Source of the DNA: Planoprotostelium fungivorum
Taxonomy: Eukaryota > Evosea > Variosea > Cavosteliida > Cavosteliaceae
DNA length: 64,000 bases
Reading direction: 5' to 3'
Assembly (NCBI GenBank): GCA_003024175.1
Contig: MDYQ01000032.1
Span: 62,001 to 126,000 of the forward strand
The notes under the pieces: generated by a model
The model's database searches: none
What the model saw: the letters and a program-made list of their open reading frames with translations, nothing else
What the model was told of the DNA's origin: nothing
Translations under genes and position numbers: made by a program
Part shown: positions 1 through 55,747 of the stretch, piece by piece
Numbering within the stretch: the stretch's first letter is position 1
Layout: the number at the start of each line of letters is the position of its first letter

Positions 1-2998
1 AAAACGAGGTGATTTCTCTTCCTATTCACTCTGTCTATACACATTCACATACTCAAAAACGATTCTGAAAACAATAAAATAGAATAAAATCAAGATCGTT
101 TTCGGCTGACCTGCGATAGCGCCTGTCCGAATTGAACAGCTTCACGGCACAGATGATCACCAAATTAGAATCTCAATTGGAGGGAAAGACTGGATCACTC
201 AAGCTCCACAAGGAACAATTGGAAGCCGACGTGGACTCCATAGAGGAAGTCCTCACTCTGGTGAGTGATGACGTCACATCACGTCATGATGACGTATGAC
301 AGGTGAAAACGAGGTTGAATCATCCGAGGAAGAGAGAATTCATCGAACGATCAGAGGAATTGATCAATGTCATTCACGAGGTAAGTAAAAGTATTTCTAT
401 CGATATGTAATATGTCGGTATAATCATTTACGTGTCCTCGAGCTTTTATTTATACATCATCAGACCTGTTCTAAATTATCCGCCCCCAAATCAGCCTATG
501 CTGTTCCCGCGCAATTCGACATGGACAACATCGTTCCTCCTTACGAATCCAAAGTCTTCAAGTTGAAGAACTACACAAAGTTAACCGACGAGGTGACCTC
601 AAATGCACTCTAAATGACACGAGAGATGACGTAAGCAAGGTGGTGTACAGTGATACCTTGATCAGTAATGGAATGACGTGGCGTCTCAAAATCTATCCCA
701 ACGGTAACGGATTAGCGAGGGGGAGTTACGTGTCTGTCTTCATGGAGCAGCTGAAGGGTTTGAGAGAGCCAGCCAAGTACGATTATAAGGTGAATCGCTG
801 AGTCGAATTGGGAGTCTTAATTCCGTCGACAGGTAGAAATGATCAACCACCGCAAACCCGATCAGAATGTGGTCAGGGAGTTTTCATCGGAATTTCAAGA
901 GGGGGAGTGCTGGGGGTACAATCGCTTCTATCAGATCGAGCAGATCCGGCAGGAGGGTGAGTCGTGAAAATTGAACGAAATCTCACCACCTCCAGGATTC
1001 ATCTCGGACGACAGTGACCAATGCGTAACGCTACGCTTTCACGTCAGACCACCTAATGTCTTTCAACTATGTAGAGATCAGCAGAGGCACATATTGAACA
1101 TGGAAGCAGAGAGGTAAGTCATCACCGCATGTCATCACACGTCATCACACGTCATCACATTGACACTCTTGACAGGGTACAATCGAACCAGAGAGAAGAA
1201 GAGTTGAAATCACAGGTGGAAGAACTGAATCGAATGTTGGCCATCAGCAATGCTCCCGTGTCCGACGTAAACACGGACAATGTCCCAACGGATCCCAACC
1301 TTACAAGACGTACCAGCCGTGCGTCCATGATTAGGGTGAGTCTTCCGAGAGATTTCATCTTACGTATCAATACTAAATCGTGAAGGACGACACACGAAGA
1401 CAGATGGCATTGTCCGATCCGAATATTTCGCGAAATCTCCAGCAGTTTCCGACACGTTCTGACGCCAACGGTGAGTTCGTTGTAGATGGAAGTTTCTGAG
1501 AAGATTCAGTCTACAACTTTGGGTCACCCACGGTTGCCATGCTTTACGGGGGAAATTTCATCCCTGTCTCAAACAACCCTACTTTTCAGAATTTCGGCTC
1601 TTTCTCTGACCCATCCAACCTTTTTTCCAATCTGAACATTAACTACCACAATCTCATGGGTCACTCCACCGTAGATGCTCCATCCCATTTTCCCAACATC
1701 GCTCCAGTACCCACCAAGCTACCCGGTGATCATCTACACCGTTGTAGACGAATCTCACGACAACAGGAGCGGACATTGCGAACAACTCGACGCCTTATGC
1801 ATCTCCCGCCGAGCATCCGTTCGTTCCACAGAACACCTCACCTGGTGACGTATGGTGACGTCATCATTCGTTGACGGGTCTCCAGGTCTCGAGATCTTAC
1901 AGTCCATCGGTGCCGTCCCCGACAGCCCTTCTCTCCTGGGTGAGTCTTCACGTCCATTCACGTCGAATCGCGGTAAGCTTACCGTGACCCAGCTGAGCCA
2001 CCCATCGTCGATCTCGAGAGAGATTCTGGCCCGTTGAAAACGACACCGGCCCTCGCTGGTATGTCCATCGAATGGTTAGAAGAGGAAGAAGAGAACACTG
2101 CAGAAGATCAGGGAGAGGAAAAGATGAACGGTGAAATAGAAGGACAGGCGGAAGAGTGGTCCGATCCCAACGAGTGAGCTACATCTTCACGTTCACACGG
2201 CTCATCACGGTGACAGTCACTTGCGGTTGTACGTACATCACGTACCGAATGATGTGGCAGAAGATGACCTCTTTTCCTTCTTGAATACTTCGATGTCAAA
2301 TCTCGGCATCAATCCACAGCACACCCAAGCCATCGTAGATAAGAGGAGCGAGGGAGGGAGGGGAGTTGTACTCGAATTCAGGAGACCGGAAGATGCGACG
2401 GCTGCCATGGCGATGGACGGTTTGAGGTTGAAGTCTTCTACCCTGGAGGTATCGTGGAGAATCTGTGGGAAGATCTGACGTGAGTTGTAGATCAGGAGAC
2501 CCAGGGGATACAGGGAGGATCACAATCAGGAGGAATCTCCCGAGGACGACGAGAGCAATCCGGACCATTCCATGAATTTTCTGATGGAGGGGACAGGTGA
2601 TGTGATGATGTGTGATGACGTCACTGATGGTGGTAGACAATGCAGCCGAGGGAACAGATTACGAGAGGTTCTCTCAAGTCGTAGACGATGACATGGATGA
2701 AGATGAAGAGTCATCTTCCGATGAGCAGAATGTTCCTGAAGACGCATGGAGGTGCAGATTCGTGTGAAGAAGAGAAACTGATTCTTTCAGATATCGATCA
2801 CAAGGTGACTTCGTCAACAACTACAAGACACCACCGGAGAGGAGTGCATCGAGGAGGAACAGTCAAGATCCATGCAGAGAAGAGGATTTCCAGAGAGATG
2901 TGAGTGCGATGATGATGGAGGATGAGACTGATGAGGGACAGGAGGGAGGGGATCAGGATCAGACGGAGGAATCAGATTTGAGTGACGGAGATCTGTAG
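1..2998 (+). CDS. TRIM37-like MATH protein with a C-terminal RRM (5' partial)
   Basis: The gene enters from the left edge and ends at TAG 2996-2998. Its exons encode a coiled-coil stretch (about 120-380) and then a MATH/TRAF domain (about 490-1090). That domain follows TRIM37 closely: FKLKNYTKL, SNGMTWRLKIYPNGNG, YVSVFMEQL, EGECWGYNRFYQIEQI and a closing PNVFQLCRDQQRHI. In the TRIM37 family a RING and B-box precede this, so they would lie outside the window. A low-complexity Asn/Ser/Pro region follows, then an RRM (about 2218-2460: RLYVHHVP as RNP2, GRGVVLEF as RNP1, AMAMDGL) resembling the first RRM of U2AF65. The tail is acidic. Reading phase is continuous across the short introns between MATH and RRM, with no intergenic gap. 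The likely role is ubiquitin ligase with an added RNA-binding or protein-binding module. The family call is strong; the single-transcript claim is inference. Confidence 0.75.
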
Positions 2999-3257
2999 AT
3001 ACGTGGCACGCCCAATTTTTTATCATAAATAGTTGAACCAATTAGGAATGAGACATTCGCCTGTTGACGCACATGTGATGCCACCGTGAAGAGAAGGATG
3101 GAAGGATACAGAAGGTGGCGAAATACAATCAGGTCCTGACGACAAGATCAGACTCGTAGAAAGAGACGAGGACATTATTGAATCAGTACATCAATGCAAA
3201 GTGACATCACCTGTATTCCATTGTGTTGCAGATGATTTCTGTGAAGTCTGATGTGTG

Positions 3258-3575
3258 CTATCAGGAGTCAGACCGACAAACGAACGAGAGATGTACGGCC
3301 AGTATTGCCTTCGGGCAGAAAACTGTATGTCCTCGGGTCGACCGCACAGAAGATGATACACGAAAGTGTTTGATTCTGGCCGGAGTGGAGACACCTTTCG
3401 AGGGACTCTACGAGGAAGGCGGGCGAGTGTCTGACGAGGCTGTGGTGTACGGAGTATGGCCGTACCCAGCCCAGGTAGAGCATCGGCGTTCTTTCTTCTT
3501 TGAGACAATCACCGACACATCGTGCACGAAGGTTCAAGTTTGAATAAATCGAACTGTATTCAATCTGTTTCTTTG
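3258..3575 (+). repeat. Dispersed repeat, copy A (3' part only)
   Basis: About 300 bases closely match the 3' ends of the copies near 31.0-31.3 kb and 49.8-50.1 kb. The match starts at a CAGGAGTCAGACCGAC block and ends at TGAATAAATCGAACTG, which contains AATAAA. Homology to the longer copies fades upstream of about 3258, so this copy is truncated. One base is missing relative to B and C (ACACCTTTC against ACACCCTTTC), so open frames differ between copies. I see no conserved protein. Confidence 0.8.
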
Positions 3576-3778
3576 TCTCTCTCTGTAGTCTTTGAACATG
3601 GTAATGAGATCGTCGATGCCTTTGAGGGCAGACGGTCTCTCTCTCTTGTGAAGCATAGAAGATTTAAGAGCTATGGATCCATCCCGTCGTGCGTCTGAGA
3701 TCCGTCGAATCCGACTCATGTCGCATAATAATACAAATACAACACAAATGTGTCGGTTGTCAATCGGGACATGAACAC

Positions 3779-3851: not shown

Positions 3852-3857
3852 GGATTC

Positions 3858-7712: not shown

Positions 7713-7777
7713 CTGTATCTCACACAGTAACGAATAAACACGTCTTCACTCTTCTGATCATTTTACTTCATCGTCCT

Positions 7778-13215
<5,438 letters not shown>

Positions 13216-17382: not shown

Positions 17383-19834
17383 ATGTCACACACGACCAGC
17401 TTCGGTGCTTTTCCTTCTGAGAAGGGAGCTCATTTCTCAGTCTGGGCACCCAGCTCACCCTCTCTCCACGTTGTTCTCTACGACAAGGACAACAAGGTGA
17501 TTCCATCCTTCCATTTCTATCGATGCTGACGACGTCCACAGGAGACCTCCAGACACGCCCTCGAGAAAGATGCAGACGGCATCTGGCAGGGAGATGTGAA
17601 GGAGGCCAGTGCTGGAACTCTATACAAGTACCTCATTGGAGAGAACGGACCTTTCCCCGATCCCGCTTCTCGTTTCCAGCCCCAAGGAGTCCACGGACCC
17701 TCTGAGGTAGGAATCATTCTGACGTCATCTCAACCCACCGGATTCCATTTCTTCTTGCATAAGATCTCACTCTCTACAGGTCATCGACAGCGGTGCCTTC
17801 AAATGGACCGACGACGCCTGGAAGGGAATCGACTCTCTGGACAAACTCACCATCTACGAACTCCACGTCGGTACCTTCACCCCCGAAGGTACATACAAAG
17901 CCTTAGAGGCCAAGCTCCCCTACCTCAAGGAACTCGGCGTCAACACCATCGAGATCCTCCCCCTCGCCGATTTCCCAGGTCGCTGGAACTGGGGATACGA
18001 CGGTGTAAGTCTTCTCATCCTCCATCACTCACCTTCCATCGACGTCTTCTCATCATCATCTCGACATCTCATCTGATCCTGATCTCAGGTCGCCCTCTAC
18101 GCACCCACTCGTGCTTACGGTCGCCCCGACGATCTGAGAAGCTTGATCAACGCCGCTCACAACCATGGACTCTCCGTACTCATCGACTTGGTCTACAACC
18201 ACATGGGCCCCGACGGAAACTACCTCTCTTGCTACAACCCCAGATACTTCACCAAGAAGTACGACACACCCTGGGGTGCTGCTCTCAACTACGACCCCAC
18301 CGTGAAAGTTCACAAGCAGGAGGGTGAAGAGGTGAAGTCCAAAACATTCTCCCTCGTCGGCTCAAAATCATCACAGGAGACCAAGGATGTATCGAAGGAA
18401 GAGTCTGCCAAGGATGCTCATGACGCTCCCCAAGTCAGAAAGTTTGTCATCGAGAACGGACTGTACTACATCAGAGACTTCCACTTTGACGGTGCTCGTC
18501 TCGATGCCACCCACGCCATCATCGATTACAGCACACCTCATGTCCTCCAGGATCTCGTTCGCACCGCCAAATCTTCCGTGAAGAGGTGAGATTCACGTGC
18601 AAGGGTGAGCTGACGAGTGCAGACCCGTCTACTTCTTCGCCGAGGACGACCGTAACGAAGCCGAACTCATCTCTCGTGAGAATGGCCTCGATGCCCTGTG
18701 GGCCGACGACTTCCACCATCAAGTGAGACCATCACATCATCTCACCATCACGGACATCATCATGACGATCGTGTCCTGACTTGAACAGGTTCGCGTCCAC
18801 ACGAACGGAGACAACGAGTCTTACTTTGCCAACTTCACAGGCAGCACCGAAGACCTCGCCACGACCATCCGAAAGGGTTGGTTCTTCACCGGGCAGATCG
18901 CCCCCGCCTCCGGTGAGAAGAGAGGTACAGATCCCTCCGGCTTGGACAGACACAGCCATAGCTGCGTGAGTCTCACCCTCTTCTTCTCCTCTCACACACC
19001 ATCCAGTATTGCATACAGAACCACGACCAGATCGGTAACCGAGCCCTCGGAGAGAGACTCCACCACCAGATCAAGTCGGACAGCTACAAGGCAGCCTCTG
19101 CCCTCCTCTTACTCTGCCCCGCCGTTCCAATGTTGTTCCAAGGACAAGAGTGGGCCACTTCTTCTCCCTTCCAGTTCTTCACCGATCACAACGAGGACTT
19201 GGGCAAATTGGTCACCGAGGGAAGGAGAAAGGAGTTTGGAAAGTTCAAGGCGTTCAGCGACCCCGAGGTGGGTGATGACGTGGCGTGACGTGTGATGACG
19301 TCATCAGGTGAGGGAGAAGATTCCCGACCCCCAGGCAGAGAAGACCTTCCAGAACTCGAAGGTGAACTGGGAAGAGACGAAGGAGGGAGACCACAAGGCC
19401 GTTCTGCAGCTGTACAAGGACGTCTTGCAGCTGAGAACGTCTGAGCCCGCTCTACACTCTGCCAAGCGATCTGATCTGGAGGTGGGGGGAGAGAAATGGC
19501 GGGAAAACTGAATTGGGACGCAGGTCGTGGCCGTTTCGGACAAGGTCCTCGCCTTCACGAGAAAATCTCAGGGAACTTCCTTCCTCTCCGTCTTCCAATT
19601 CAAGGTGACACGTTCCATCTACAACGTTGTAGACTGACCAAGATATAGGAGGGAGAATCGAAGGTCGATTTGAGCCAATTTGGAAGTGGTTGGAGCGTTG
19701 TCTTGAACTCGCAGGACGCGGCTTACGCCACGACAGACAGCAAGGTCCAGCCGGCCACGCTGAGTGGCAACACGCTCAACTTCAACGGACCCAACGCAGT
19801 CGTCTTACGTGGACAGACCTCCGTGTCCAAATAG
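17383..19834 (+). CDS. treZ: Malto-oligosyltrehalose trehalohydrolase (GH13, TreZ type)
   Basis: Begins [20 protein letters not shown], an N-terminal CBM48-like domain ([17 protein letters not shown]). A GH13 barrel follows: [30 protein letters not shown] and [13 protein letters not shown]. Conserved regions are [14 protein letters not shown], then RLDATHAI (nucleophile Asp), FAEDDRNE (acid/base Glu) and [10 protein letters not shown]. The pairing of [11 protein letters not shown] with FAEDDRNE and NHDQIGNRA points to TreZ rather than branching enzyme. It releases trehalose from maltooligosyl-trehalose (EC 3.2.1.141). There is a Lys/Ser/Glu-rich insertion (about 18320-18430). Several short introns occur and the stop is TAG 19832-19834. 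Codons are strongly C-ending (CTC, ATC, ACC), suggesting high expression. The family is mainly bacterial and archaeal, so transfer followed by intron gain is plausible. Its usual partner TreY is not in the window. Confidence 0.88.
19617..19634. repeat. Intronic palindrome ATCTACAACGTTGTAGAC
   Basis: Lies in the last-but-one part of the trehalohydrolase gene, inside a short intron that starts GTGACACG and ends GATATAG. The core TCTACAACGTTGTAGA is a perfect 16-base palindrome. Confidence 0.85.
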
Positions 19835-22834: not shown

Positions 22835-25800
22835 TCAGGCCTTGTTTCCATTCGAGAGGTTCTCCTTGTTGTTTCCAGAGGCCACGCCCTTGCTCGATCT
22901 CACACTCGGTGGCGCCAACTTGGTCGTTGTGGGTGCTCTCACCTTCAACTTTGTCTCTTCGATCTCCACTTCTACATCTCATCAGCTCGTGACGCTCATC
23001 ATCATCATCATGACACTCACCGTCGCGGAAGAGGGGCTGGGGTGGAGAGAGCGTAAGCTCGGTTGCCCTCACCGTGTACGTATTTACGCCGGACACGGGA
23101 GTCATCGGAGGAATGGTGGGAAAGGACAAGTTCTTACGAACGGGGGTAGCTCCAGTGGGAACGTCCCTCTGCTTCGGTCAGCTACGCAGCTACGTCTGAT
23201 GACGTCATCACCTTCACGGCAGCCACCAGGCGAGATGCAGAGAGATGGAAGTCCATGGTGTCTGAATGGAGCTGCTGCGTCCTCTGCTCGTGCTGCTGGT
23301 GGGAGTCCTCTACAATAGATCTCTCCTTCTCTGAATTCTGAATGAGGGACGTGTTGATCGTTTCGACGTGGGAGGTGAGGCCGTCGGTGACTTGTTTCTG
23401 CGACTGCGAGTGGGATGTCGCGGATTCGGTGTGGTGCGAGGTGAATTCGCAGATCTGAGACTTGGCGTGGGTCACGTGACGAGACAAGGTGGAGTCCAAG
23501 TCCTTCTGCTGTTCCGAGGACCTGAAATTTCTCGTCAATTTCTGTGGAATTTCTGTGAGACTTCTCACTCTGACTGGAAGGCGGTGTGGAGAGTGGCTGA
23601 TGCGGCGGCGGATTGGGTCTGATCTACAACGTGGTTCTGTACCAATCTCTCCATCTTGGAGATTTCCTCCAATTCCACGCGAGCGTTCTCCTGCTTCTCC
23701 ACCGAGAAGGATCGGCACGAATCTTTGAGCCCACCGACCTCCTCCACCACTCTCTCTCTTCCCTCCTTCACATCTACAACGGTCAACCGTTTTCCCGCCA
23801 AAAAGGTTTACCTCTCGTGTGGTGGTCCACCGTATTGTGAACCGTTCTGAGGCTCTCTGAATAGAAGACAGTCGTCTGCTGGAAAGCCTTCTGCACCATA
23901 TCGTTGATGTTCTTGAATAATTGTTCCTGCACAAACTGTGCCGTCTGCTTGTAGTCCCCCTCCAGCTTGTCGAGCGTCTACAATGAGATGAATACATTGA
24001 CTACACAGACAGATGTGATGTACCTCTCGTGTAGACTGCAGGCGTTGTGTCTGGTTAGCAGCGTGAGAAGTGGTGAACTCTTCCACTTGTGTCAGTTTCT
24101 GAGACTGCTGCGAAGAGAAGAGGAGGGAGGAGTCACGTGACTTGATCGCCCTCTCGCGTTGTAGAGAGAGGGAGAGGGACAACTGCAAAGGTGAGTCGTT
24201 GTAGACGGAACGTTCGAGGAAAGTTCACCTCTCGCTCGTGGGTTTCGACTTGGGCCCTCAGGGAAGCGGCGACGGCGCAGGAATCTTCCAAGAACTTTTC
24301 GAGTAATTTTCCGTGAAGAGCGGAGGCCGCCTGCCCGGTCGAAGAGATTTCATCGAGTTCTCCATCGATCTTCTCTCTGTGCGCGTCCACCAGCGAGGCC
24401 ATGGCCTTGTGATTCTCCACCAGTAGCCCCTCGAGACCGGAAATCTGCGATCGCAGGACTGCGAGTTGATCGGTCGTTTGAGTGAGTGCCTCTTCCATGC
24501 ATCCGTCCAGGGCACGAACGGCCATACTTTGAGCCGCTCTAAAATCTCCAATTTTCTCCGTCTTCTCTCTCGTATACTTTTCCAATTGAGTTCCCAGCTG
24601 TTCCACCACCTTGAAGTTGTTCTCCTCCACGCTGGTCTTCCTGGCTGTCAGACGTGTCAGGATACATAGCGTACGTAGGGTACGCACCGACTTTCGAGTG
24701 GAGCTGGTCGTTGTCGTGCATGGAGCCCTTCAGCGTGGAAGATAAAGCTTGAGCATCGGAGAACAACATGTTCTCCACCTTCTTGTGAGTCGAAATTTCC
24801 GCGGACTTTCCGATTCAGTACGTACCGTACGTATCCACTCACCTGGGCCTGCACGACATCTTGCGTCTGTTGGAGAACGTTCTGGGTCTCGGATAATTCT
24901 TGTTCTCTCATCTCTAACTTCTCCGTCTTATCATGGAGAGAACAAGTCAATTGTCCGTTCTCCTCTTGCTTCGTGTGGAAAGCGTTGAGCCAGATGTTCT
25001 TCTCGTCATCCAGGGCTTTGATTCTGGCGTCCAGCCTCTCGATCTCTTGGAGCTGGTACTCCTTTGTCTTGTGCATCTCTGACCAAGTGTCGTTGTCAAC
25101 GTAGAAGCCACTACCAGATCTGGCCGCCTACACGATCGTTCAGTAAGATGATCATCGTGATGATGATCGTGATGATCATGATGAGAGGGAGAGGTTCACC
25201 TCTAATTGGCGTCTCAAGATGGCGTTCGTGTTCTCGATCTCCTTGATGAGTGTCTTGGCTGTCATCTTCTGGTTGATCTGCGGAGCGTTCTTGATGTTCT
25301 TCGCCTTCGACGCGTAATCGAGCGTACTGTTCGTCTCATCATACGAGCAGCTGGAGGGTGATACCGTTGCTATGATACACGTCTTCGTGTGTCCTCCCAG
25401 GGAATCCCTCAGAATGCGAGTCAATTTGGACTCCCTGCATTCCGTCAGAATTTCATCGAAATTTCGACTCGTACCTGTACGGCACGTGATTGCCTGAACT
25501 CTTCTCGACGAGAGCGTTGATGACTCTTCCCAGGGCAACGAGAGACTTATTGATGTTCTTTGCTTCCTGCAATTTGGTGTCCTTCACTCCTGATTTTCCG
25601 ACATTCTCACTTCCCGCCAAATCGACGAGGTTTAATTTTCCAATCCTGCACAAGTCTTCTCCACCGGGGGTGGGCTCCTTCGTGCGGATGATGATGGTGA
25701 AGATGGAGTGGGAGCGGCTGGTGAGGTTAGGAAAGATTCGGAAAGTTGGAATTCCTACCTGGACGTGGCGTTCATCTTGGTCTCGGCAACTTGACGGTGC

Positions 25801-26593: not shown

Positions 26594-26771
26594 GATGACT
26601 CTTTGGGTAAAGACAATTGACCCAAGTGTGGTGGCGGGAGATAAGAGGATAATGGATGGGCTTTCAAATTCGAATTCTCCCGCCAAAAATGTATTTTGAG
26701 AACTCACCGTCTACAACGTAGACTCTCTCACAAATGGCGTGCTGCCATCGCAGAACCAAATCATCTGTCCA
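26594..26771. promoter_or_regulatory. Divergent promoter region of kinesin-5 and SUV39-type genes
   Basis: Only 178 bases separate the two start codons. The interval contains GTCTACAACGTAGAC (26710-26724), a shortened form of the palindrome seen in introns. It could belong to a 5'UTR intron or to the shared promoter. Confidence 0.4.
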
Positions 26772-31512: not shown

Positions 31513-34500
31513 TCACACAGAGAGGTCCCACAATATCTTCTCCAACTCTCTTAGATCTGTCACTCGAATGAGATGAGGCTTCCAGCGGTACACGGTTGCC
31601 ATGGCATTGCACTGATGCAACAGAGTGTACATCATCATCGTCCTAGAAAATCTCCCCGGCTCTCTCATCAGGGGCCACCTCATTCCCTCAGTATTCCATC
31701 TACAACGCTCGTCGACACACCTGTCGACACCGTATGTCTCCAGGAATCTTCTGAGAAGTTTCTTATCGCAGCGGAAGAGGGAGACGTGAAGGGCTACGAG
31801 ATCGTACATTGGATCACCCACACAAGCATCTCCAAAGTCAATCAACCCTGATGGCTGCCAATCGTAGACTTCTTTCAGGTACCCTGCAGAAAATGAGCTC
31901 GTTGTAGACGGAGAGATCTCGCGGAAAACTCGTCACCTTCTCCACGCTTCGTCGTGTCTAGCTTGGCTTCGGGTAATTGTCCCGGGTAATATCCGATCAG
32001 GTTCTCGTCGTTGACGTCAGAATGGATCAATTGGAATCGATTCGGTGCATCTAAAATCTGACGATCTACATCGATGTAGTCTCTCATCTGTATCTCTTCA
32101 CCATTTCGTCCATCACGAGATGATTTCTCACCTGAGATATGACGGTGGAGTCGGTGATGAACCAAGACTCATGGTCCTTGATGAGGTCTTCGTCTCTCTT
32201 TGTGATGAACTTCTTCCAATGTTCCACGTCTTCGTCGCTGACTTTTCTCTTCAAATCGTGTAATTTTCTCAGATTTTCGGCCAAGAAGTCGACCGACTGT
32301 CTACAATGAGCCATACGTAATCCACTTCCCGGAACGTCACCCTCTCAATGCTCTCGTTCTGCAGTGTGCTCCACACATCTCTGACTGGGTCTCCCAGCAG
32401 CCTAGATGCAACGACATACAACAACCCTCCCTCTATCGATTCGTTTGCGTTCGTCTGCTCTAACGTGAACATCTCTTCATCGTGTTCGGATAGTAAAGTT
32501 CCTCCGACGTACGGTACTTACCAGGTGGTATCCCTCCTCCTGCTCCACGATCTGTCCCGAGAACAATAATTTCGGACATTTGACTTCACTTCCCTGCAAG
32601 AGAGAATACATATTCACCTGATTTCGTTCATCTACAACGTTGTAGACGGACTTCTCACCTCTCGATCGAAGCTCTCCCTGGCCTCTTTCTCTGCGGTGTA
32701 GAATTTGACCACGGCTTTTTCTGTCATGAAGACAGTGTTCGTGCTGTCGCTCGGTAGTTCGACTTGATATTTCTCTTGTGGAACCTCCATTCCATGATGA
32801 GCGCAGACCTATCCTCTTCTTTCAGAAAAAGTCAAGTGGACAATTCAACTCACGGCACGCAGCGCTTCCCACAGATCAGTCTCATCATCATCATCATCAT
32901 CGGCACCGCCTTCCTCCTTCAGCTTCTCTTGTCTCCTCTCTTCTCTCTCCCTCCTCACGTGTTTCGTCATCTGAGTGTATTCCGGATGTTCCGCCGTCAA
33001 CACTTGAACGAAATGTTCGAAATCCTGCGAGAAGATGAGCGTTGTAGTCCTACGTATCGGTGCGTATTCACCTTGTCTCTCTTCTTACTCGTGGCGATCT
33101 CCTCGAGAGTATCTCTAACGTTACACCTCCCAACGAAGTTCTGAGTGACAGCGACAGTGTCCTCTAAATTTAAGACAATGTGCCACCATCCCCTCGGAAC
33201 AAAGATGGTCTCTCCCGCCTCCTGCGTGATCTTCGCAGGTTTCAGATATCTGCGATCTGCGATTCTCCACGATCACCTCGATGGGTCTCTGGTGTGGGAG
33301 GAGAGAAGGGTAGATGGCATAGAACCACTCCACTGGGAACGGTGCCTCCATGTCGGTGTACAGCCCCCTACCTGATTCTTCCGTCATTCTTCCGTTTCTC
33401 CGTTCTTCCGATTTTCCTCACCGTTGGGGTGCAGGGTGAGGCCGGGGGGTACAATGTGTGGGGGATAGAAGGCCCATCTCTTTCTACCGGATAATAAACT
33501 GTTCCAGGCTGATGTGCCGTCTGGGTCCGTGTGCCAAGGTGAACCGGACCTTTCGGGACCCAAAATGACCCAACGGAAATTGGGACGGTTCTCCTCGAGA
33601 AGCTCGTACATGTCCTCACGGAAGAGGGAGGGTGGGGTGTAGTCTGGGGAAGGTCAGGAGTGGCTCGTTGTAGTGGGGTACCTTTCAGCATCTCCGGTGC
33701 TTTCTCTCCAAAGTCAGAGTCGAAGATATAGAGGGGTGCCTCGTCACTCTGTAATTTGGCATAGTGCATGTAGTTCTTCAGATTCATCGTTAGCTTCTGT
33801 TTTCCTGGAAAGGGTCATCTACAACGAGACGATCGTTGGCTCACCCTTGTGAGAGACCTTCCATTGGATGTCTCCGTATCGTTTCAGCATCTCTTCACCC
33901 TTCCAGTGTTCATGTGCTTTCCATCTGATGGAAGAATGAGATGGTGTCTACATGATGATTAGATGTCACCCATCCATGGCACCCTTCAACATGACGATCT
34001 TGCAAGGAGCGTCGTAATTCTCTCGGAAATCCTCGAGATCGATGGTCTTGATGTCGATACGGGGGACATGTCCGTGATCGACATGGAATTCTTTCAGAGG
34101 GAGGTGAGATAGATACCAACGGTAATATAGAGCGTGAGAAGTGAAACCTGTGAAGAGGTTCATCAAGGGTGATGGATACGCATCGCGATTGCTTTTGGAG
34201 GAGATGTGAGAAGAAGGATTGTCGAAGACGTATGTGATGGAGGTGATTGATTACCTTGGACGGGAACACGTGTCGGCATTGTGGGGAATGCATTCGGATC
34301 TGCTGTCTGTCTCTCTTTGGGAGTGAGAGCCGTCAATTTCCAATTGCCTTGGAACAGAAAATCACCACCGTGACGATCGAGAGCCAATGATTTCCACAAG
34401 AACTCCTCATTCGAGAACACGTAGAATACCTGCGACAGAGTTATAACAAATTCATCGAAGTCGTGACGTCTATACCTTGCTGACGAGGGGAACTGATGAA

Positions 34501-36491: not shown

Positions 36492-39400
36492 ATGGATTGG
36501 ACAGCGACACCGCTCCTCCTGCTGGCGTGCCTGAGCGTGGCCGAGGCAGTGAAGGCTTCAGTGGAAGAGGTAACCAAAAACATCGCGAGAGAGAGGATGC
36601 TTTCCATAGACACATCAGTGAGTCACGCTGCGTCTTCCCTCTTAATACGACCAGACAATCTTATTTATAGCTTTTGTGGTGGTGGGAATCACGGCCCTCA
36701 TTTTGCTGATACTCAAGACTTTGACCGAGTCCACTGTCTACTCTGCAGTGAGCAAGCGGCCAGCTCATAAGACGAAGTCGCAGGATAATCTTGTGAAAAT
36801 CAATCACACGGACGGAGAGGGAGCTACGTCAGCCAACTCCTTCCATTCTGCGAGCTCTGACAATGAGCCGAAGAGCGACTCTTCTCTTCACTACGCTGAG
36901 AATCCTCTATTGGTGACACGGCCATTTGCTCGATATCACAGTGCTGATTTGATATGCAGGAGGTGAAGAAGACAGCGAACAGAGACGAATGGAGGAAGAT
37001 CATCTCCATTCCAACCGTTTTCATCGCAGCAGTTCTCCTCTTCATCGCCGTGATTGCCATCTCCATCACTCTCCTCAGTTTCTACGCACAGAACAGCATG
37101 GTGTCCGATCTGACCACAGAGATCCAAGATGAGATCGGAAAGAACTTTCTCGGCCAAGTCAACGAGACCTTCCAGAATTACAACCGCTGGGGACAAGAGA
37201 GTGAGCCATCGTATCATCACCATCTTCCGTCGTTCATCATCTCACCAATCGCAGTCCAGTCTTTCTCAGATTATTACTTCAAGCCTGGATATCAACTTCC
37301 CCTGAACGAATCTGCCTACCAAACTTATCCTGAATTCTTCCAGTATCTCATCTCATCCATGATCCACAAAGACATCGGCTCGGGCTTCAATGTGGGGGTG
37401 AGTCCATCTACAACGAGACATTTCATCTCATCTTTTCAGTTTTCCAACCAAAAGGGATTTGGAGGGGGCTATGAATTATTTGGAGTCGATGTGTTCGACA
37501 CAGTCCTCGTCAACGGGACGGCTTACCTCTATGTCTCCATCCTTCCACCCAGTCTCAATTTTTCGGCCCTACCCAACCCGGAGTGAGAGATCCAAGGATG
37601 TGACTCGTTGTAGATTGACGCCGGACAGTCCGAACGCCTTCTACAAGATTCCGGCCGGACCGAATGTGGTTGCCGATATAGGATGTCCAGCAGGTGCACC
37701 GACCACCTTCTGGCAACCTCTCTACCCTCAGGTATTCATCTTCATCATCATCACTCTCATCGTCATCGATCATCATCATCATCACCTGATGTCATCTGAC
37801 ACCATCAGCCCACCGGCACTGCCGCCATCGAAATTTCCATCCTCCGAACCATTCGCGTCTGTCAAGAGAGCATCCTCACTTACTTCATCAACATCACAGT
37901 CAAGTTCACTCGCTTCGCTGCCCTCCTTCAGGGAATGGTACAACAAGTCAAGGGAAGAGCTTTCATCGTGGAGACGAACGGTGCCATCGTTGCATCTACC
38001 ACTGGATCGCAACCTTTCGCCTCGACTGCCAAGGGGTGATTCAGATCCATTTCGATTACCTCTTTGATTGACGTGGATTCAGTTACGAACGATATTTCGC
38101 CACGAACACGACGGACTTGTGGATCAGGGAAGCGTGGAAGATCTATCTGGCGGATACAAAGACATCGCAGAGCACTCACACCATCGACGGCGTCAATTAC
38201 TTCATCTTACCCAGCTCTTATGAATCTGGAGACGGTGTCTCGTGGATCATTCTACACTTGGCCGAATCGGACCCTTACCTCGGTACCATCCGTACCTACA
38301 TCAGGTCACGTGACGTGTGATGACGTCATCTGACGTACCACAGGCGAACGGGTATCGTGGTGGGAGTGGTGGTGGCCGCCGCCGTGATTCTGGCCGTACT
38401 CGCTTCGTTTTGGATCACCCGACCGTTCACTCACCTGACGAGACAATTGCAGAAGGCGGCCAAGATGCAACTGACGGAGGAGGACATCTCGGTGCCCTTC
38501 TTGTTCGAGGCGAGAAGGTTGCATCAGGCGTTCGTCACGATGAGAGATGCGATGAAATCTTTCCAGAGATATATTCCGGAAGCACTCGTAAAGACTCGAG
38601 TGAGTGATGTCGATGACCAAGATCATCATCATGTTCATCATCATGTCCATCATGACTGATCGAAACAGATGGATTACAAAGATCTCAAACACTTGGTAGA
38701 GATCGGATCTGGTGCTTACGGTGTAGTCTATCAAGCGGGTGAGCCACATCCACCGCCTCGAAGGGATCTGACTCTCGGCAGATTGGAACGGAGAAATCGT
38801 CGCCGTGAAGCAGATCAAGACGGAACTCATCGACGAGAGGCAGATGTCCGAATTCTTATCTGAAGTCAGCATCCTACAACAACTGACGCCCCACCCCAAC
38901 GTCGTATTGTTCCGCGCCGCGACTTTCCCCCCGCAGCCTCTCAGGTGAATCGATCGTTCACGTTCGATCCATCTTCTCTAAACGTACACTCTAGCATGAT
39001 TACTGAATTCTGCGGTGGAGGTAGTCTGTACGGTGAGGCGATTCGATTTTGCCGTACGTTCTAATTCGATGCCCAGCTCACATCCGCAAGTATCCGAATC
39101 TCGCGGTGAAGGAGAAATTGAGACTCATATCCGAGATCGCCAAAGGAATGCGTCACCTGCACCAACAGAAAGTCGTTCACAGGTGCGAACTCCTTCTCCT
39201 CTCTCTCTAACCAACCACGTAGAGATCTCGCCCTTCGTAACATCCTTCTCAACGACAGACTCGAAGCTAAAGTTTCTGATTTCGGCCTGTCGAGAGTCAA
39301 CGGCAGCGAGGATGGTTCGACTACGGCCAATGCCGTGGGACCTCTAAAGTGGATGTCACCAGAAGCCATCACCGAGAACAAGTACTCGACCAAATCGGAT

Positions 39401-39921: not shown

Positions 39922-42065
39922 TTACTTCTTTTCGGGTTGTTCTGAGGCGGAAGCTCTTCCGTAGGTGTTGACGAGGTGCTTCAACTTGGACGCACTCTCG
40001 GAGGTCAAAGCCTCTTGACTCTTCAGACGCCAGGCCCAGTTGCCCTCGGCCGTGGCAGGTGTGTTCATCCTCGCTTCGCTGCCGAGGTCTAAGACGTCCT
40101 GCAGCTGCACGATGCTCGTGTAGGCTGTAGAGGAGATGGCCAAGCGGATCATGTCCCAACTGGCCGTCTCGATGATTTCCTTCGCTTCGTCCTGAAATTT
40201 CGTTGGGATTCCAGCGGATTTTAGATGTAATCTCGCTCACTTTCTCGCGATCTGAAGAAGCGGAGACGTCGGCGTCACCTTCTCCCCTCTTTCTCTTCTC
40301 TCCCGGGGCGACCGAAGGCGTTGTAGATCGTCCCAAATAATCGCGCAGGAACCTCCTCTGCTCGGGTGTCGCTTTCTCTGCGAATCCTCGAACCTGCGAA
40401 TCTCAGCAGTGATGGTGCGGCCGTGTCCCACCGTGTCGTTATCGTGGGTACCAGTGTAGATGACAGTGCCAGGGTAAGGAACATTGTGAGGCAGGTGTTC
40501 GCTGTTGGGGCTGTCCCAGGCGAATTGTAGAACCTATGACGTCATCACGACGTCATCACACGTCACCCACCCTCATTCCTGGGAATTGGAGGCCTTCCCG
40601 GAGATCAGTGACTTCCTTTGTGATGAGACCGAGGTCCTCAGCGATGATTGGAATCTTCTTCTTCAGCTGCTCGTTGACCGACTTGAAGACTTTGTCACCC
40701 GCGCCTGCCTCGTTGTAGATCGACACGGTGAGTTCTCTCACCTTCGACCCATTTTCCTCCCTGGGCCGTCTTATCTGTGATGGGCACCTGAACGAATCAA
40801 TATCGTCCGTCTACAACGTTGTAGATCACCTCCCAGGCCGCCTGGAAGCCTCTAAAGTGATCGATTCTGACGATATCTGCCAGGGCGAGAGTCCTCCTGA
40901 ATCGAAGAGCCCACCACTTGTAGTCTATCTCCATCAGTCTCTGATGACGTCACCACACGTCACTCACTCTCTTCCGCGCAGGCCTTCCAGTCGTACATCG
41001 GGTTACCCCACAGCTGGCCCGTTGCACTGAAATAATCGGGAGGGACACCGGCTTGTACGGTCTGTCTTCCCTCGGCGTTCAACTTGAAGAGTTTTTGGTT
41101 GGCCCAAACGTCGGCGGAATCGTAGGCCACGAAGATCGGAATGTCACCGACCAATTTGATATTCAAATTTGCCGCCTTTTCTCGAGTGGCTTTCCACTGG
41201 GAGAGGTGAGGGAGCGTTGTAGATCGTGACGTCACCTGTTCTGCGAAGAGGAATTGGTTGAAGTAGTGCTCGTCGATGGCATCGGCGTAAGCTTGTCTGG
41301 CCTTGTCAAGCGCATCTGCGCTGCGATTTCTCAATTCTGCGGGCCATTCCACCCAGCACTTCTTCGTGTCTTCGCTGATGGCCATGAAGAGGGCGAAATC
41401 TTCCAACCATTCTTTTCCTTGAGATTTCACGTATTCTTCCATCTTCTCCTTCCATTGTCCCAACTGCTCGTGTTGCACCTGTCCTCCATCATCATCGCGA
41501 TCATCATCACGATCGTTGATCTTCACCTCTCCCGATCGGAAACGATCACGAGCGAGCCTGAGAGCTTTACGCTTGAGGGGTGTCAGATTGTTGTAGTCCA
41601 CCTTCTCTTGGTTCAACTGAGTCAACTCCTTCACATCCTCTGGCTTCAACAACCCCACATCCAGAAGAGGCTGTTCGTAGGTCAGTTGCAGCTGCATCGC
41701 ATGTGTGACGTCTCACCTCTAAGGCGATCATGGCAGGGCTGGCGGCCATAGCACTTGGTACAGCGTAGGGGGTACCTGATCGATCGATGAGACGGTGAAA
41801 TCTCGTGTGAAACTCACCAGCATGACCGTGTGGGTTGAGAGGTAAGAATTGCCACAGGGTCTGTCCGGCTTCATGCATCCAGTCTAAGAACTTGATGGAG
41901 GCAGGTCCGACGTCACCGATACCGTATGGGCCTTGTGTTCGTCTGAGATGAAGGATGATTTGATGGCAGGTATTCACCTGGAAGAGAAGTGGGATGCAGT
42001 AAGATACCGGATCTTCTGACTTCGAGAGAAGTGATGGATTCCTCAGATTGAGAGTTGGTCGTCAT
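39922..42065 (-). CDS. 4-alpha-glucanotransferase (GH77, MalQ/DPE1 type)
   Basis: Starts MTTNSQSEESITSLEVRRSG (ATG complement 42065-42063) and ends SEQPEKK at TAA complement 39922-39924. GH77 blocks: GILLHPTSLPG, YGIGDVGPASIKFLDWM, WQFLPLNPHG and YAVPSAMAASPAMIAL. Further along are KLVGDIPIFVAYDSADVW, IVRIDHFRGF (nucleophile Asp), IIAEDLGLIT (acid/base Glu) and YTGTHDNDTVGH. It disproportionates maltodextrins (EC 2.4.1.25). An in-frame upstream ATG at 42167 would add MRRLASQTRLPHTIQHLSRS..., an Arg/Ser-rich stretch without acidic residues that could be a mitochondrial presequence; which start is used is open. With the TreZ-type enzyme it points to an alpha-glucan/trehalose route. It converges on the kinase gene, 71 bases between stops. 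Confidence 0.9.
40810..40825. repeat. Intronic palindrome TCTACAACGTTGTAGA
   Basis: A perfect 16-base palindrome in an intron of the GH77 gene, a few bases from the splice site on the minus strand. Confidence 0.85.
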
Positions 42066-42369: not shown

Positions 42370-45300
42370 TTATTGTAGAGGATTTCCTCTTATCGTTCCC
42401 CTCATACCCGAAGGCTTTCTTAAGGTTCCTTGTGGTGTCGTCTCCTTCTGTACCTGTTCATCCATCAGTCATCGAAACGTACGATATTCAAGAATAAAAT
42501 GATTTTCGTAGAATATCGATCAAAGTCACCTGAGAAGAGACGAGATTCAACAGATTGCTCATGTTCTGTTGAGGTTTCTCTGCGGCAACGGCGATTCCAG
42601 CTCGTAGACTCTTTGTCCTTCTCATCTTCAAGATGTGCTCCTGCAACTGCTGCATTCCCTGCTCTTCCGTCTCTTCTTTCTCTTCACTCCCTTCGGGGAG
42701 GATGACTTTGACTCTCTGTCTGGGTGCCACCATGTGGCTCTTGGCTCTCTTCCTCAGTTCCTCCTGCTTCCTCCTCTCTACGTCCGCTCTACAACGCTGT
42801 AGACGGTCAATACATCGTCTTCGTATCGTATCATACCTCGATGGAACCGTTGAAGGAGATGAGAAGAGAGAAGAAGTCCTCCCATTTGTATATCTCTGGA
42901 TCCTCTCCAAATCTCGTGGCCAGTTTCTTGAACTTACCCGCCACGGCTTCCACCCTCGCGTTGATGGATTCAGACCTCACCCTGCAACGGTCAGATCCAT
43001 CTACAACGTTGTAGATCCGACTCACTTGGCGCGGTCGACAAAGAGGTTGAGCCTGGAGATGTAGGCACGGTTTGAAGGGTGAGAGGCTTCTTCTGAAGAG
43101 TTGGAGAAGGAGTCAAGCTCGTCCGTTATCTTCTTGATGCCTACACGTATGGAGGCTCCTTCCTCTCTCAGTGTCTGTGAAGAGATGGAGCTGGCGCTGG
43201 GAACGGCTGACAGCTCGTCCCACCATCCGAGTATGTCTGGGTACTTGTTCTCCATCAGATCGGAGATCCAGTGGAGCAGAGTGCTGGCGTTATCGGCAGA
43301 TTTCGTGTCTCCGATCTGTTGAAGTGTCAGATCTTCCCACCGTTTCTCCATCTTCCCACCTTCAACAAGACGTCCAATTTGAATCCGTAAGCCCTTCCAT
43401 TGGGTGTGCCCCCGTTGAGATGATTTCCCACGGCCAGAACGATCTGCAGGAGTTGTCTGAACTTCTTCGAAGAGAGACACTCGTCGAATGCTCTGTCCAA
43501 AGTGTTGAGGCTGGGCGTGAGGTCGTTCAGCTTCGATTCGAAGCATCTCATGAAGAGCCAATTCTCCACGCGGGAGTTGATCCGTGGGACGTTCTCCAAT
43601 TCCAAGATGAACATCTCCGGTCGATCTAATTTTGCACGATCTCCCGTAAAATCTCTCACCATGGCAACCTGATACTGTCAGTTCGAAATTTCGACGGAAT
43701 TTGTTCACCTCCTCCGGTGTGGGTACAATGTTCTTCAGAGCGGTGAGTTGCTCCAAGCTCATGACGTGATCGTCTAATCCCATGAGAGCCCTTCTCAGCT
43801 GATTGAAATCCATCTTCAGCTGCCCCAAGGCGATTCCAATGTGATTGGCTCTCTTGTGATCCAAGAGACTGACCTTCCTCTCCTTGCTGGGTCCACTTCC
43901 TTCGCTTCTCACGGTCACCGCGGCCACTTTCGTACAGAAGTTCTGCTCGAGGTCGCTGACGTCGTAATGGATGACTTCCTTGCATTCGCTCCAGATGGTG
44001 GCCATGATCTTTCCATTATGGATCTTCTTCCAGGCGAGACGCTTCATCTTGGAGCTGGGGTTGATCACGGGCTTGGGTGGGAGGCCTGGGAGACCTTCAG
44101 ACTTTGGGAAACCATTGGAGGGGCCCATGGGAGGGGGTGGAGGTGCACCACCGGGGGGAGGGGGTGGTGGGGGTCCACCAGGTGCCGCGGGAGGGGGGGG
44201 AGGGGCGGAAAAGCTACCCGGTGGGGGAGGTGGGGGTGGGAGGGAGAGTTCTTCCGTTTTTCCGTTGAGCTGCTGGGCGTCGGCCTGGGTGATCTTACCG
44301 TTGGCCAGGGAGATGTACTGACGCAGTTGATCGGAAATATCTGTGGGAGCTTCTCTGATCTTGAAGTAGATCTGGTTGAGTTCATCCTGAGTCTTCTGCA
44401 ACTTCTCCTCGAGATCTCTCACGGCGGCGTTCGTGTTCTGAGGGCGTGAGATGACGTTCTACAACGAGCCACACCTGCTCTCCCGATGCACCCATCTCTC
44501 TGATCCTCTTCTCGAGAGATTCCATCTGCTCGTCGTGGTTTCTCCTCATATCTGTGATGGTCTCGTGGGCCACAAAGACTGTACAGATTGTCATCCACGT
44601 GTGGTGACGTCATCACACGTCATCACTCACGTGAATCCAACGGTATTCCGGGTTCCAAAGTGACGATCTTCTCCACGACGGTGGAGATGTATTTATAGAT
44701 CTGAGCTGCCCTGGGGTCATCGTCTCGGACTGACAACAGCTTGTTCGATATAGACAAGAGTTGTCCGGTCTGTCCTGTTCTCTTCCTCATCTCTTCCAGG
44801 GCCTCGCCTAGATCGGAATAATTTGTCTCCGGTAGAATGGCCGTCGTCAGTTTACGCATCTCATCGGTGTCCATCTGTCGAGGTGAATACACCGCGGAAT
44901 TTTGGCGGGAAAATGTTACCTTCTTCTCGGTGCGGTACAATTGGACTTGGATTCTAAGTTCCTCGTCGACGGTCTGTGACATACTCTCGATCATTCTGGA
45001 CAGGCCCATCTCATCTAGTTCGTACCGGATGGTACTCCTCTGGTTGAGATCCTTTGGTGAATGGATGAGGGAGTTGACCACTCGCATCAGGGCCACCTGT
45101 GGGGTGATGAGGAAATTTCCGGGAATTTTCTGTACCTTGACGAGGATTTCGTTTTCCAGTGAAAACTCGCGGAGGATATCGAATCGGTTGTGGTCTCCTC
45201 TCTGTCTCTTGGTAAACTCGAACGCATCGAGGACCAAGCTGATGATGATGCGTCAGATCGATCGATGGAGATCATCATGGGGGACTCACTGGTATCCCTC

Positions 45301-53425: not shown

Positions 53426-53433
53426 GTCTTGTG

Positions 53434-54126: not shown

Positions 54127-54426
54127 AATGTTTTTCCATCCTATGGAACAGGACGCCCCCTTCTATCTCCATCCACACTAGACATCATCATCATGAGGCC
54201 ACGTCGGCAGCTTCCCTCTCTTCCCTTGCTAGTGGATGATTCACCACGGCCGCTTCTCAACGGATTCCCTTTGATTCTATACGAGTTCCAGGAACTTGCG
54301 GAAATTGACGAGAAAATGGGTTCGCCCGCTCTTCGGAGAAGAGGGAAAACTGGGAGAACAAGAAAACAAAAGCATCGACACCATCCCATCGAGAGGTACA
54401 TAGAGCCCTCCATTGAATATATATAC

Positions 54427-55747
54427 ATGAGTACAGCGACGGACACAGTCAATACAACGGAGGTCACATTGCCACGACCTTTAGCTGCTCCTCGTTCGGT
54501 ACTATCACCCCTCTTTGGACTATTTCTCGTCGCTCAGACACAGAATATATTTTCGAGCAAGTCCAGTCAGGAGGTGGAGAACATGGCCAACGTACCCGAA
54601 GCAACTATGGAGGACGCAGATTCTTCAGACATGTTCGAGAATGAGGCACCTGATACCACCCCCGATACGATAAATACAGTTCAGCCCACAAGCGTAAGCC
54701 CATCGATTTAATTAACAGTGTTTGAATCACAATCTCATTTACGTCAGGACGGTTCGGAGACGGCCGATAGTGTAGGACGTTCGAACACCCAATCACAACC
54801 ACCCCAAAAATACATTTTTCAATCGGGAGCCAGTGCAATCGCTCACCCCAACAAACAAGACAAAGGAGGAGAGGACGCCTATTTCATCTGCCCGAGCGCC
54901 TTCGGCGTCGCCGATGGTGAGTCATTCAATCACCGTCCCTCTTTTTGGCATGCGAACCCAGACCAAAAGTCCCACGAAAAAAATAATATGGATCTCCGAT
55001 AATCTTATCTCTTCGTGGGCCTCCATGATGAAGGGCATGCGCTCCTCTATACGATACTCACCTCTTCCAGGTGTCGGTGGTTGGAATGAGATCGGCATCG
55101 ATCCTTCTCTCTACTCCCGTAAATTGATGGAAGGTGCACAACTGTCCGTCATGAACGAGCCACCACAGACTCCCCCCGTCGTCACCCTGCGGAACGCTTA
55201 CGATCATGTGACCTACCACAACATCATCGGCTCCACCACCGCCTGCATCGTCAAATTAGAGGGAGACAACCTCAGAGCGGCCAACTTGGGAGACAGTGGA
55301 TTCCTCATCGTCAGAAATGGTCAAGTCATCTACCGAACAAAAGAGCAGCAGTTCTCTTTCAATTTTCCATACCAGATCGGTACCAACAGCGACTGCCTGC
55401 CTGAATCACACGCAGAGGACATCACCCTCCAGATCCAGCCCAACGATATCGTCGTAGCCGGTGAGCATCTACAACGTTGTAGATCGTAACTAAAATCATC
55501 AGGCTCGGACGGATTATTTGACAATTTGTACGACCAAGAGATCGTGGAGATACTTCGAAACTGCACGGATGATGCTCAGGAGGCAGCAGAGAAGATAGCA
55601 CACATGGCATGCAAGATGTCGAGGGAGTGGACGAGACTGTCTCCCTTTGCAAAACAAGCTCACAACCACGGTTTGATCTTTGTATATGGAGGAAAAGTGG
55701 ACGACATTACCGTTGTGGTGGGAATCGTGAAGGAGAACTCCACGTGA
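54427..55747 (+). CDS. PP2C-family phosphatase, PPTC7/Ptc7-like
   Basis: ATG 54427 (MSTATDTVNTTEVTLPRPLA) is one start; the frame is open up to 54091, so a longer N-terminus is possible. Motifs: GGEDAYFICPSAFGVADG, VGGWNEIGIDPSLYSRKLME, IIGSTTACIVKLE, LRAANLGDSGFLIVRNGQV, VAGSDGLFDNLYDQEI, then GGKVDDITVVVGIV. This is the compact PPTC7/SpoIIE-like PP2C. Metal-binding Asp residues (ADGVGGW, GSDGLFDN, DDIT) are present. Yeast Ptc7 and animal PPTC7 act at mitochondria; the Arg/Pro/Ser-rich N-terminus would fit, but I cannot show targeting. Stop TGA 55745-55747. Confidence 0.88.
55467..55484. repeat. Intronic palindrome ATCTACAACGTTGTAGAT
   Basis: A perfect 18-base palindrome in the PPTC7-like gene. 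The intron reads GTGAGC, then the palindrome, then CGTAACTAAAATCATCAG, so the hairpin starts six bases after the 5' splice site. Confidence 0.9.

What the first reader, a model, noticed from the sequence alone, without database searches (positions are those of the whole stretch)
1731..55484. A 16-18 base palindrome (TCTACAACGTTGTAGA) recurs in introns of unrelated genes on both strands
Perfect copies lie at 9663-9680, 19617-19634, 32631-32646, 40810-40825, 42999-43016 and 55467-55484. One-mismatch or shortened copies lie at 1732-1749, 9331-9348, 12060-12077, 26710-26724 and 42788-42803. Half copies (CGTTGTAGA or TCTACAACG) lie in many further introns, e.g. near 1480, 24193, 33826, 37408, 41216, 57348. 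All but the 26710 copy, which is between genes, fall in introns of seven unrelated genes. In several the hairpin begins 6-11 bases after the donor. By chance a 16-mer would not recur in 64 kb. It may be a hairpin that shortens the donor-acceptor distance, a protein or RNA binding site, or the trace of introner-like elements that spread introns.
Basis: seen in the sequence. Interest (0 to 1): 0.85.

Follow-up and report, generated by a model that had tools for sequence, protein, structure and literature searches.

The report
Recurring palindromic DNA sites inside introns
In this small eukaryotic genome a short mirror-image DNA sequence sits in many of the very short introns, in either orientation and with few mutated copies, which looks like a binding site for a DNA-reading protein inside gene bodies rather than an RNA hairpin or a leftover of intron spread.

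Summary
TCTACAACGTTGTAGA occurs six times in the window and 681 times in the 36.86-Mb genome (reversed control 0); TCTACANNNNTGTAGA occurs 1,800 times (control 7). A self-trained gene finder puts most copies in introns of about 43 nt; 748 pattern hits have GTGAG within 14 nt upstream, against 53 for CTCAC.

An RNA hairpin is unlikely: spaced inverted half-sites are few (64), a compensated double mutant is near chance (5, control 2), and half-site introns show no excess folding. The half-site is enriched alone and stands in introns in both orientations (CGTTGTAGA 21 sense, 19 antisense; branch word CTGAC 100 to 5), joined to itself, TGNCTC or TGGCGG (272 copies, control 0). Near-miss palindromes are few (4 against 23 exact in 264 kb), no target-site duplication was seen, and the motif differs between paralogs at shared introns, so introner relics are less likely.

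Best reading: a dimeric double-stranded-DNA recognition site kept by selection in gene-body introns. Some 12-15% of predicted introns carry it, few within 500 bp of the start codon; held-out sequence repeats this. Binding protein and function are inferred, not shown.

The parts
1726..1766 (+). 41-nt intron with palindrome TCTACACCGTTGTAGA at 1733-1748 (MATH-domain gene)
9313..9353 (-). 41-nt intron placed by hand, with palindrome at 9332-9347 (ABC transporter); both automatic models place the boundary differently
   Evidence: splice read from sequence
9648..9687 (-). 40-nt intron with perfect palindrome at 9664-9679 (ABC transporter); the same intron position carries TTGTAGAT in two paralogs
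12037..12082 (-). 46-nt intron with palindrome at 12061-12076 (ABC transporter)
19605..19648 (+). 44-nt intron with perfect palindrome at 19618-19633 (alpha-amylase-family gene)
32594..32658 (-). Predicted 65-nt intron with perfect palindrome at 32631-32646 (F-box/JmjC/APH gene); the flat model does not call the same intron
40788..40829 (-). 42-nt intron with perfect palindrome at 40810-40825 (GH77 4-alpha-glucanotransferase, inside the Pfam match)
42764..42836 (-). Predicted 73-nt intron with one-mismatch palindrome at 42788-42803 (formin-like gene by eye); boundary less certain
42982..43025 (-). 44-nt intron with perfect palindrome at 43000-43015 (formin-like gene by eye)
55461..55502 (+). 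42-nt intron with perfect palindrome at 55468-55483; splicing it out restores GSDG inside the PP2C match
1471..1509 (+). Intron with single half-site CGTTGTAGA at 1478-1486, sense
24183..24228 (-). Intron with single half-site, antisense to the gene
33805..33844 (-). Intron with single half-site CTCGTTGTAGAT, sense
37398..37439 (+). Intron with single half-site ATCTACAACGAG, antisense
37583..37628 (+). Intron with TGACTCGTTGTAGAT composite, sense
40705..40741 (-). Intron with ATCTACAACGAGGCA composite, antisense
41197..41235 (-). Intron with single half-site, antisense, beside a TGACGTCA site
57336..57375 (+). Intron with single half-site ATCGTTGTAGATC, sense
26709..26724 (.). Shortened copy between predicted genes, upstream of a gene that looks kinesin-like by eye

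Best explanation
The motif is a sequence-specific recognition site read on double-stranded DNA, most likely by a dimerising DNA-binding protein. Its constant half-site is GTTGTAGAT. The second half-site is joined at a preferred geometry and is one of at least three: the same half-site inverted (giving the palindrome ATCTACA-ACGT-TGTAGAT), TGNCTC, or TGGCGG. The sites lie in introns of about 40 nt, mostly in the free stretch between the 5' splice site and the branch site; in some introns the half-site overlaps the 3' splice site. They are kept by selection inside gene bodies, rarely in the first 500 bp, and act there in transcription or chromatin rather than at promoters. Shown here: preferred geometry, occurrence in both orientations, concentration in predicted introns, the start-distance gradient and the scarcity of one-mismatch palindromes. 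Inferred: selection, the binding protein, and a gene-body role such as supporting elongation or nucleosome order in long genes.
For: Abundance: 681 exact, 1,800 with free centre, reversed controls 0 and 7. Both orientations in intron bodies outside palindromes: CGTTGTAGA 21 sense to 19 antisense, branch-site word CTGAC 100 to 5; behind GTGAG genome-wide 332 (CTCGTTGTAGAT) and 243 (ATCTACAACGAG), reversed controls 0. Spacing: 64 places with 1-30 nt between inverted half-sites against 681 at the fixed overlap. Composite TGGCGGGTTGTAGAT 272, control 0. Sharpness: 23 exact palindromes against 4 one-mismatch forms, all four at the outermost base; half-site 67 exact against 21 one-mismatch in introns, shuffles 0.35 and about 4; the A4-to-G form 16 places (control 10) against 1,800, while the centre varies (681 of 1,800 have ACGT). 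Location: 748 GTGAG-flanked hits against 53 for CTCAC; half-sites 66 in 27 kb of introns, 29 in 100 kb of exons, 4 in 37 kb intergenic with the flat model. Gradient: 6 of 146 introns under 500 bp from the start codon carry it, 69 of 352 beyond; held-out 1 of 34 and 12 of 78.
Against: No binding protein, occupancy or expression data. The sites are scarce in intergenic DNA (in the 250 bp upstream of predicted genes 4 half-sites in 16.4 kb), unusual for transcription-factor sites. Symmetry is not exact: 332 to 243 behind donors; the word GTTGTAGAT is 20 to 13, and 14 to 7 with the flat model. Of the 50 places listed, 13 have a spacing of one base, so the geometry is not wholly rigid. Some sense half-sites supply the 3' splice site itself (13 of 499 introns), so an RNA-level share is possible. 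Half-sites do have near-miss copies above the shuffles. Intron calls are ab initio. The held-out sample is small: 12 of 21 half-sites and 3 of 4 palindromes in introns, 1 sense and 3 antisense.
Confidence: 0.6

Rival explanations
1. The palindrome is the remnant of introner-like elements: introns were gained by insertion of a short inverted-repeat element in either orientation, and the palindrome is what is still recognisable.
For: Both orientations and many discrete copies fit insertion either way round. Intron positions are labile between ABC paralogs (92 introns in five predicted gene pieces, 12 shared positions). Some unrelated introns are alike over most of their length. Introners with hairpin-forming inverted repeats exist in Amoebophrya (PMC7789003, passages seen).
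Against: No clear target-site duplication: for 70 motif introns suffix and prefix matches equal the permuted values and the longest junction repeat is 4.07 against 3.96 +- 0.09. Few near-miss palindromes although the centre has diverged. At four shared intron positions one paralog has the motif and the other does not, and one shared position has three different motif forms. Motif introns are not longer than others (median 43 against 45).
Confidence: 0.15
2. RNA-level splicing signal: the sense half-site supplies branch site and acceptor (CTGACTCGTTGTAG|A), the antisense one a CTACAAC branch site, and the palindrome both.
For: 13 of 499 introns end in CGTTGTAG (18 of 539 with the flat model); sense is somewhat commoner behind donors.
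Against: Palindromes start 4-13 nt into 15 of 16 introns and 25 nt into one, early for a branch site or acceptor in a 43-nt intron. Ending the intron inside the palindrome would break the frame in 11 of those 16, by the distances. The branch word is one-sided (100 to 5) and CGTTGTAGA is not.
Confidence: 0.12
3. An RNA hairpin that brings donor and branch site together.
For: Palindromic introns fold better than their shuffles (z -1.57, 16 introns), and so, less strongly, do introns with other palindromic motifs (z -0.60, 63 introns).
Against: The compensated G-C double mutant occurs 5 times (control 2) against 1,800; only this one substitution was tested. Inverted half-sites with 1-30 nt between them: 64. 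Half-site introns (36, z -0.09) and introns without these motifs (313, z 0.03) show no excess folding.
Confidence: 0.03
4. Recognition or landing site of a site-specific enzyme of a mobile element, or a recombination-initiation site, that survives only in introns.
For: Sharp specificity and palindromic symmetry; scarcity in exons and intergenic DNA.
Against: The interchangeable left half-sites fit combinatorial protein dimers better. I made no search for insertions or breaks at the sites.
Confidence: 0.08

Closest known systems
Intron-mediated enhancement motif TTNGATYTG (Arabidopsis; PMC6760150, start of abstract in the listing)
   Same: A motif over-represented in introns that, by that title and abstract, acts from within transcribed sequence by a splicing-independent route.
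   Different: It is promoter-proximal; the present motif is depleted in the first 500 bp and in first introns (2 of 67). The sequences are unlike.
CTCF in gene bodies as a regulator of splicing (PMC8373115, start of abstract in the listing)
   Same: A sequence-specific DNA-bound factor inside genes, possibly acting on elongating polymerase (mechanism recalled).
   Different: Different sequence; here the sites sit in introns of about 43 nt, at some 12-15% of predicted introns; no binding protein is known.
Introner elements with inverted repeats (Amoebophrya PMC7789003, passages seen; survey PMC9860276, passages seen)
   Same: Inverted repeats inside introns of many unrelated genes.
   Different: No clear duplicated target site, in most pairs no alignment beyond about 20-40 bp, few near-miss palindromes, motif differing at shared introns.
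CRE (TGACGTCA), E-box (TCACGTGA) and E2F (TTTGGCGGGAAA) sites (names recalled, from no call)
   Same: Dimeric palindromic or composite geometry; the TGGCGG partner resembles the E2F half-site as I recall it.
   Different: The core GTTGTAGAT matches no site I recall; no motif database was available. TGACGTCA is itself strongly intronic here (1.55 per kb in introns, about 0.1 elsewhere); the others are less so.

Membership tests
Introner element | Introns of one family align over most of their length in unrelated genes | tested here: inconclusive
   All-against-all introns, 290 pairs at E <= 1e-3, best 70 viewed: some near full-length pairs, several in the TGACGTCA class and between recent paralogs; for this motif mostly 20-40 nt around the palindrome.
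Introner element | Target-site duplications or terminal inverted repeats | tested here: not met
   Suffix, prefix and junction repeats near permuted values for 70 motif introns; the palindrome is internal. Many known families lack these too (49 of 130 with TSDs, 72 of 177 with TIRs; PMC9860276), so this does not exclude membership.
Introner element | Presence/absence of motif introns between close relatives | not testable with these tools
   No relative of this genome is held.
RNA hairpin element | Compensatory base-pair changes | tested here: not met
   One substitution tested: single 16 (control 10), compensated double 5 (control 2), against 1,800.
RNA hairpin element | Tolerance of loop length | tested here: not met
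   64 places at spacings 1-30 against 681 at the fixed overlap.
DNA-binding-protein site | Occurs in both orientations relative to the gene | tested here: met
   CGTTGTAGA 21 to 19, branch word 100 to 5; 332 to 243 genome-wide, a mild sense excess; GTTGTAGAT 20 to 13.
DNA-binding-protein site | Preferred half-site geometry with reusable half-sites | tested here: met
DNA-binding-protein site | A protein that binds it | not testable with these tools
   Needs biochemistry.
Intron-mediated-enhancement motif | Enrichment in promoter-proximal introns | tested here: not met
   2 of 67 first introns against 73 of 431 others.

The most novel reading that the evidence does not exclude
The ultra-short introns of this species carry a genome-wide gene-body DNA code: a small set of dimeric half-sites (GTTGTAGAT, TGNCTC, TGGCGG, and separately TGACGTCA and others) placed in introns because that is the free DNA inside genes, increasingly with distance from the start, to keep long genes transcribable (elongation, nucleosome order or suppression of cryptic transcription). 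That would give minimal introns a DNA-level role independent of splicing.
Probability: 0.3. Interest if true: 0.9.

Novelty: new variant of a known kind. Interest (0 to 1): 0.72.

Why it matters
What very short introns are for, and why intron-rich compact genomes keep them, is open. Here 1,800 palindromes with exact arms, and many more half-sites (ATCTACAACGAG 2,299 places, some of them coding), occur in one genome; in the sequence that I could annotate they are concentrated in introns of about 43 nt, stand in both orientations, have few near-miss palindromes and become commoner with distance from the start codon. If a protein reads them, introns in this lineage serve as docking places on DNA inside genes. 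That is directly testable by binding and deletion experiments.

Tried and rejected
Chance: rejected. RNA hairpin: disfavoured. Target-site duplications: none clear. Promoter or first-intron enhancement: disfavoured by the gradient. Known RNA families: only a tRNA in the window. Ultra-short introns ending inside the palindrome: would break the frame in 11 of 16 (distances). Exonic copies can be coding: near 25998 the letters read Leu-Tyr-Asn-Glu in a kinesin-like gene (by eye), so the 2,299 genome-wide ATCTACAACGAG include coding coincidences. Viral contigs: 54 stretches with one match each; taken as chance without a control scan and not followed. Species not identified: two name searches did not settle it. 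Literature: searches listed no paper whose title or abstract start describes this motif; only the listed part was seen (15 of 48, 12 of 20, 8 of 21, 8 of 14), plus passages of two papers. C1:1-100000 (repeat-rich, motif-poor) was left out of the counts (densities); it is included and in the position lists.

Against my reading: a sense excess behind donors; half-sites in exons (29 of 99; 6 of 21); introns with other palindromic motifs fold better than shuffles (z -0.60, 63 introns); half-sites with near-miss copies above shuffles (21 against about 4); the within-gene start-distance test reaches only p = 0.02; for the TGACGTCA class gene length predicts as well as start distance.
Full report
Observation. 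The 16-mer is where the finding says: six exact copies, four with one mismatch and one with three, against a shuffled mean of 0.18. The window belongs to an unnamed eukaryotic assembly of 36,859,091 bases in 471 contigs. There the exact 16-mer occurs 681 times and TCTACANNNNTGTAGA 1,800 times; the same patterns read backwards give 0 and 7.

Where it lies. No annotation or relative was available, so I trained a gene model on the window and C1:1-200000. It found 703 introns, median 43 nt, about half of them between 36 and 43 nt. Of 23 palindromes in those 264 kb, 19 lie wholly in predicted introns, 3 are partly covered and 1 is intergenic. That model learns intron composition, so I repeated the annotation with intron and intergenic composition made identical (other parameters kept): 17 intron, 5 exon, 1 intergenic for palindromes, and half-sites 66 in 27 kb of introns, 29 in 100 kb of exons and 4 in 37 kb of intergenic DNA (window plus C1:100001-200000). 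In the window, seven of ten palindromes lie in introns that both models call identically; 9332 lies in a 41-nt intron that I placed by hand; 32631 and 42788 have less certain boundaries. Four motif introns lie inside Pfam matches (GH77, PP2C, DUF3459 of the amylase-type gene, ABC membrane). Without any gene model, 748 pattern hits have GTGAG 0-14 nt upstream of the palindrome and 53 have CTCAC; a palindrome may be hit more than once.

Hairpin. If base pairing mattered, a G-C pair replacing A-T in the arms should be tolerated. The single A4-to-G form occurs 16 times (control 10) and the paired G-C form 5 times (control 2), against 1,800; other substitutions were not tested genome-wide. If a stem mattered, inverted half-sites with a loop should be common; spacings of 1-30 nt give 64 places against 681 at the fixed overlap, and 13 of the 50 places listed have a spacing of one base. 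Of 428 introns folded, those without these motifs behave as their shuffles (313, z 0.03), as do half-site introns (36, z -0.09); palindromic ones stand out (16, z -1.57), and introns with the other palindromic motifs do so less (63, z -0.60).

A double-stranded site with exchangeable halves. CGTTGTAGA occurs 107 times on the two strands of the 264 kb; within 80 bp the only recurrent pair geometry is the palindrome (13 pairs). In intron bodies outside palindromes CGTTGTAGA is sense 21 times and antisense 19 (15 and 12 with the flat model), GTTGTAGAT 20 and 13 (14 and 7), whereas the branch-site word CTGAC is 100 to 5. Behind GTGAG genome-wide the CTCGTTGTAGAT site is 332 sense and 243 antisense. 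The left neighbour of GTTGTAGAT tends to fall into classes: the inverted half-site, TGNCTC, or TGGCGG; TGGCGGGTTGTAGAT occurs 272 times, control 0. With the full model's labels, palindromes are intronic in 37 of 37 labelled rows (a perfect palindrome gives two rows), TGNCTCG 17 of 19, CTCG 4 of 6, GCG 10 of 16, other CG 13 of 23, while TTGTAGA with other left flanks is 12 of 49; the intron share of the sequence is about 16% (rows from three extra loci carry no label).

Sharpness. In 264 kb, 23 exact palindromes stand against 4 one-mismatch forms, all at the outermost arm base. The half-site has 67 exact copies in introns against 21 one-mismatch copies (shuffles 0.35 and about 4), none of them in the letters GTA of its centre and one at the T before. 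The second arm matches 6 of 6 in 35 rows, 5 in 4, 4 in 1 and 3 or fewer in 134. Since the central four bases vary (681 of 1,800 have ACGT; 45 of the 99 sites compared), recent spread alone does not easily explain the invariant arms; continuing selection does. How such long sites arise without intermediates is unexplained.

Introners. No clear target-site duplication. Five predicted ABC transporter gene pieces with 92 introns share 12 positions between two or more. At one shared position three paralogs have TTGTAGAT in different forms (palindrome, TGGCGGG composite, single site); at four others only one paralog has the motif; seven shared positions have it in none. So the motif seems to turn over inside existing introns, although parallel intron gain at the same position cannot be excluded.

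Position in the gene. Motif introns are rare early: 2 of 67 first introns against 73 of 431 others (Fisher p 0.0015), and 6 of 146 introns within 500 bp of the start codon against 69 of 352 beyond. Distance from the start predicts better than distance from the end or gene length, and a within-gene permutation gives p = 0.02. In 40 kb not used for training (C251:20001-60000, same contig as the window) the pattern recurs: 1 of 34 and 12 of 78; 3 of 4 palindromes and 12 of 21 half-sites are intronic (6 exonic, 3 intergenic); no near-miss palindromes. Upstream of predicted genes there are 4 half-sites in 16.4 kb. Promoter action or intron-mediated enhancement is therefore unlikely; a gene-body role is the better guess.

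Interpretation. I read the element as a dimeric DNA-binding site kept in introns, which are the free DNA inside these genes, with a role in transcription through long genes. The first part rests on tests; the second is inference. Splicing use of the same letters occurs where the half-site forms the 3' splice site (13 of 499 introns), and the mild sense excess may reflect that.

Comparison with the literature rests on search listings and on passages of two papers. No title or abstract start that I saw there described this motif.

Noticed in passing
window 1114-1175, 9878-9916, 10941-10980, 19268-19307, 40534-40570, 44579-44630: A second intron motif present in both orientations, TGACGTCA / GATGACGTCATC (GATGACGT 32 sense, 29 antisense), sometimes in 10-bp tandem arrays, likewise concentrated in introns.
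   Followed up: partly
introns of the window, e.g. 28130-28166 and 44875-44919: Further palindromic or composite words denser in introns: GAAATTTC, TCACGTGA and GGCGGGAAA.
   Followed up: partly
window 6960-7027, 23774-23811 and others: Introns whose 3' splice site lies inside the half-site, often CTGAC(T/G)CGTTGTAG at the intron end (13 of 499 introns end in CGTTGTAG).
   Followed up: partly
C5:95591, C16:63798, C63:25363 and ten more of the 50 places listed: A second palindrome geometry with one extra base, TCTACAACG[C/G]CGTTGTAGA.
   Followed up: no
window 3256-3581, 30592-31311, 49396-50124: An interspersed repeat in three copies, 94-97% identical in parts.
   Followed up: no
window 4054-4600 and 7179-7718: Tandem paralogous stretches 86-92% identical in blocks; some of their introns have diverged.
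   Followed up: no
window 20207-20327 and 20497-20617: An exact 121-bp direct duplication, starts 290 bp apart.
   Followed up: no
window 31513-34562: A predicted gene joining F-box-like, JmjC/cupin and APH kinase domains.
   Followed up: no
L005-L018 (C1:1-140000): This stretch has no TCTACANNNNTGTAGA and, over much of it, lower CpG; the motif begins abruptly after it.
   Followed up: no
L029 and L031: ABC transporter paralogs at 58% protein identity, with 22 and 21 predicted introns, share six intron positions, so intron gain and loss appear rapid.
   Followed up: partly
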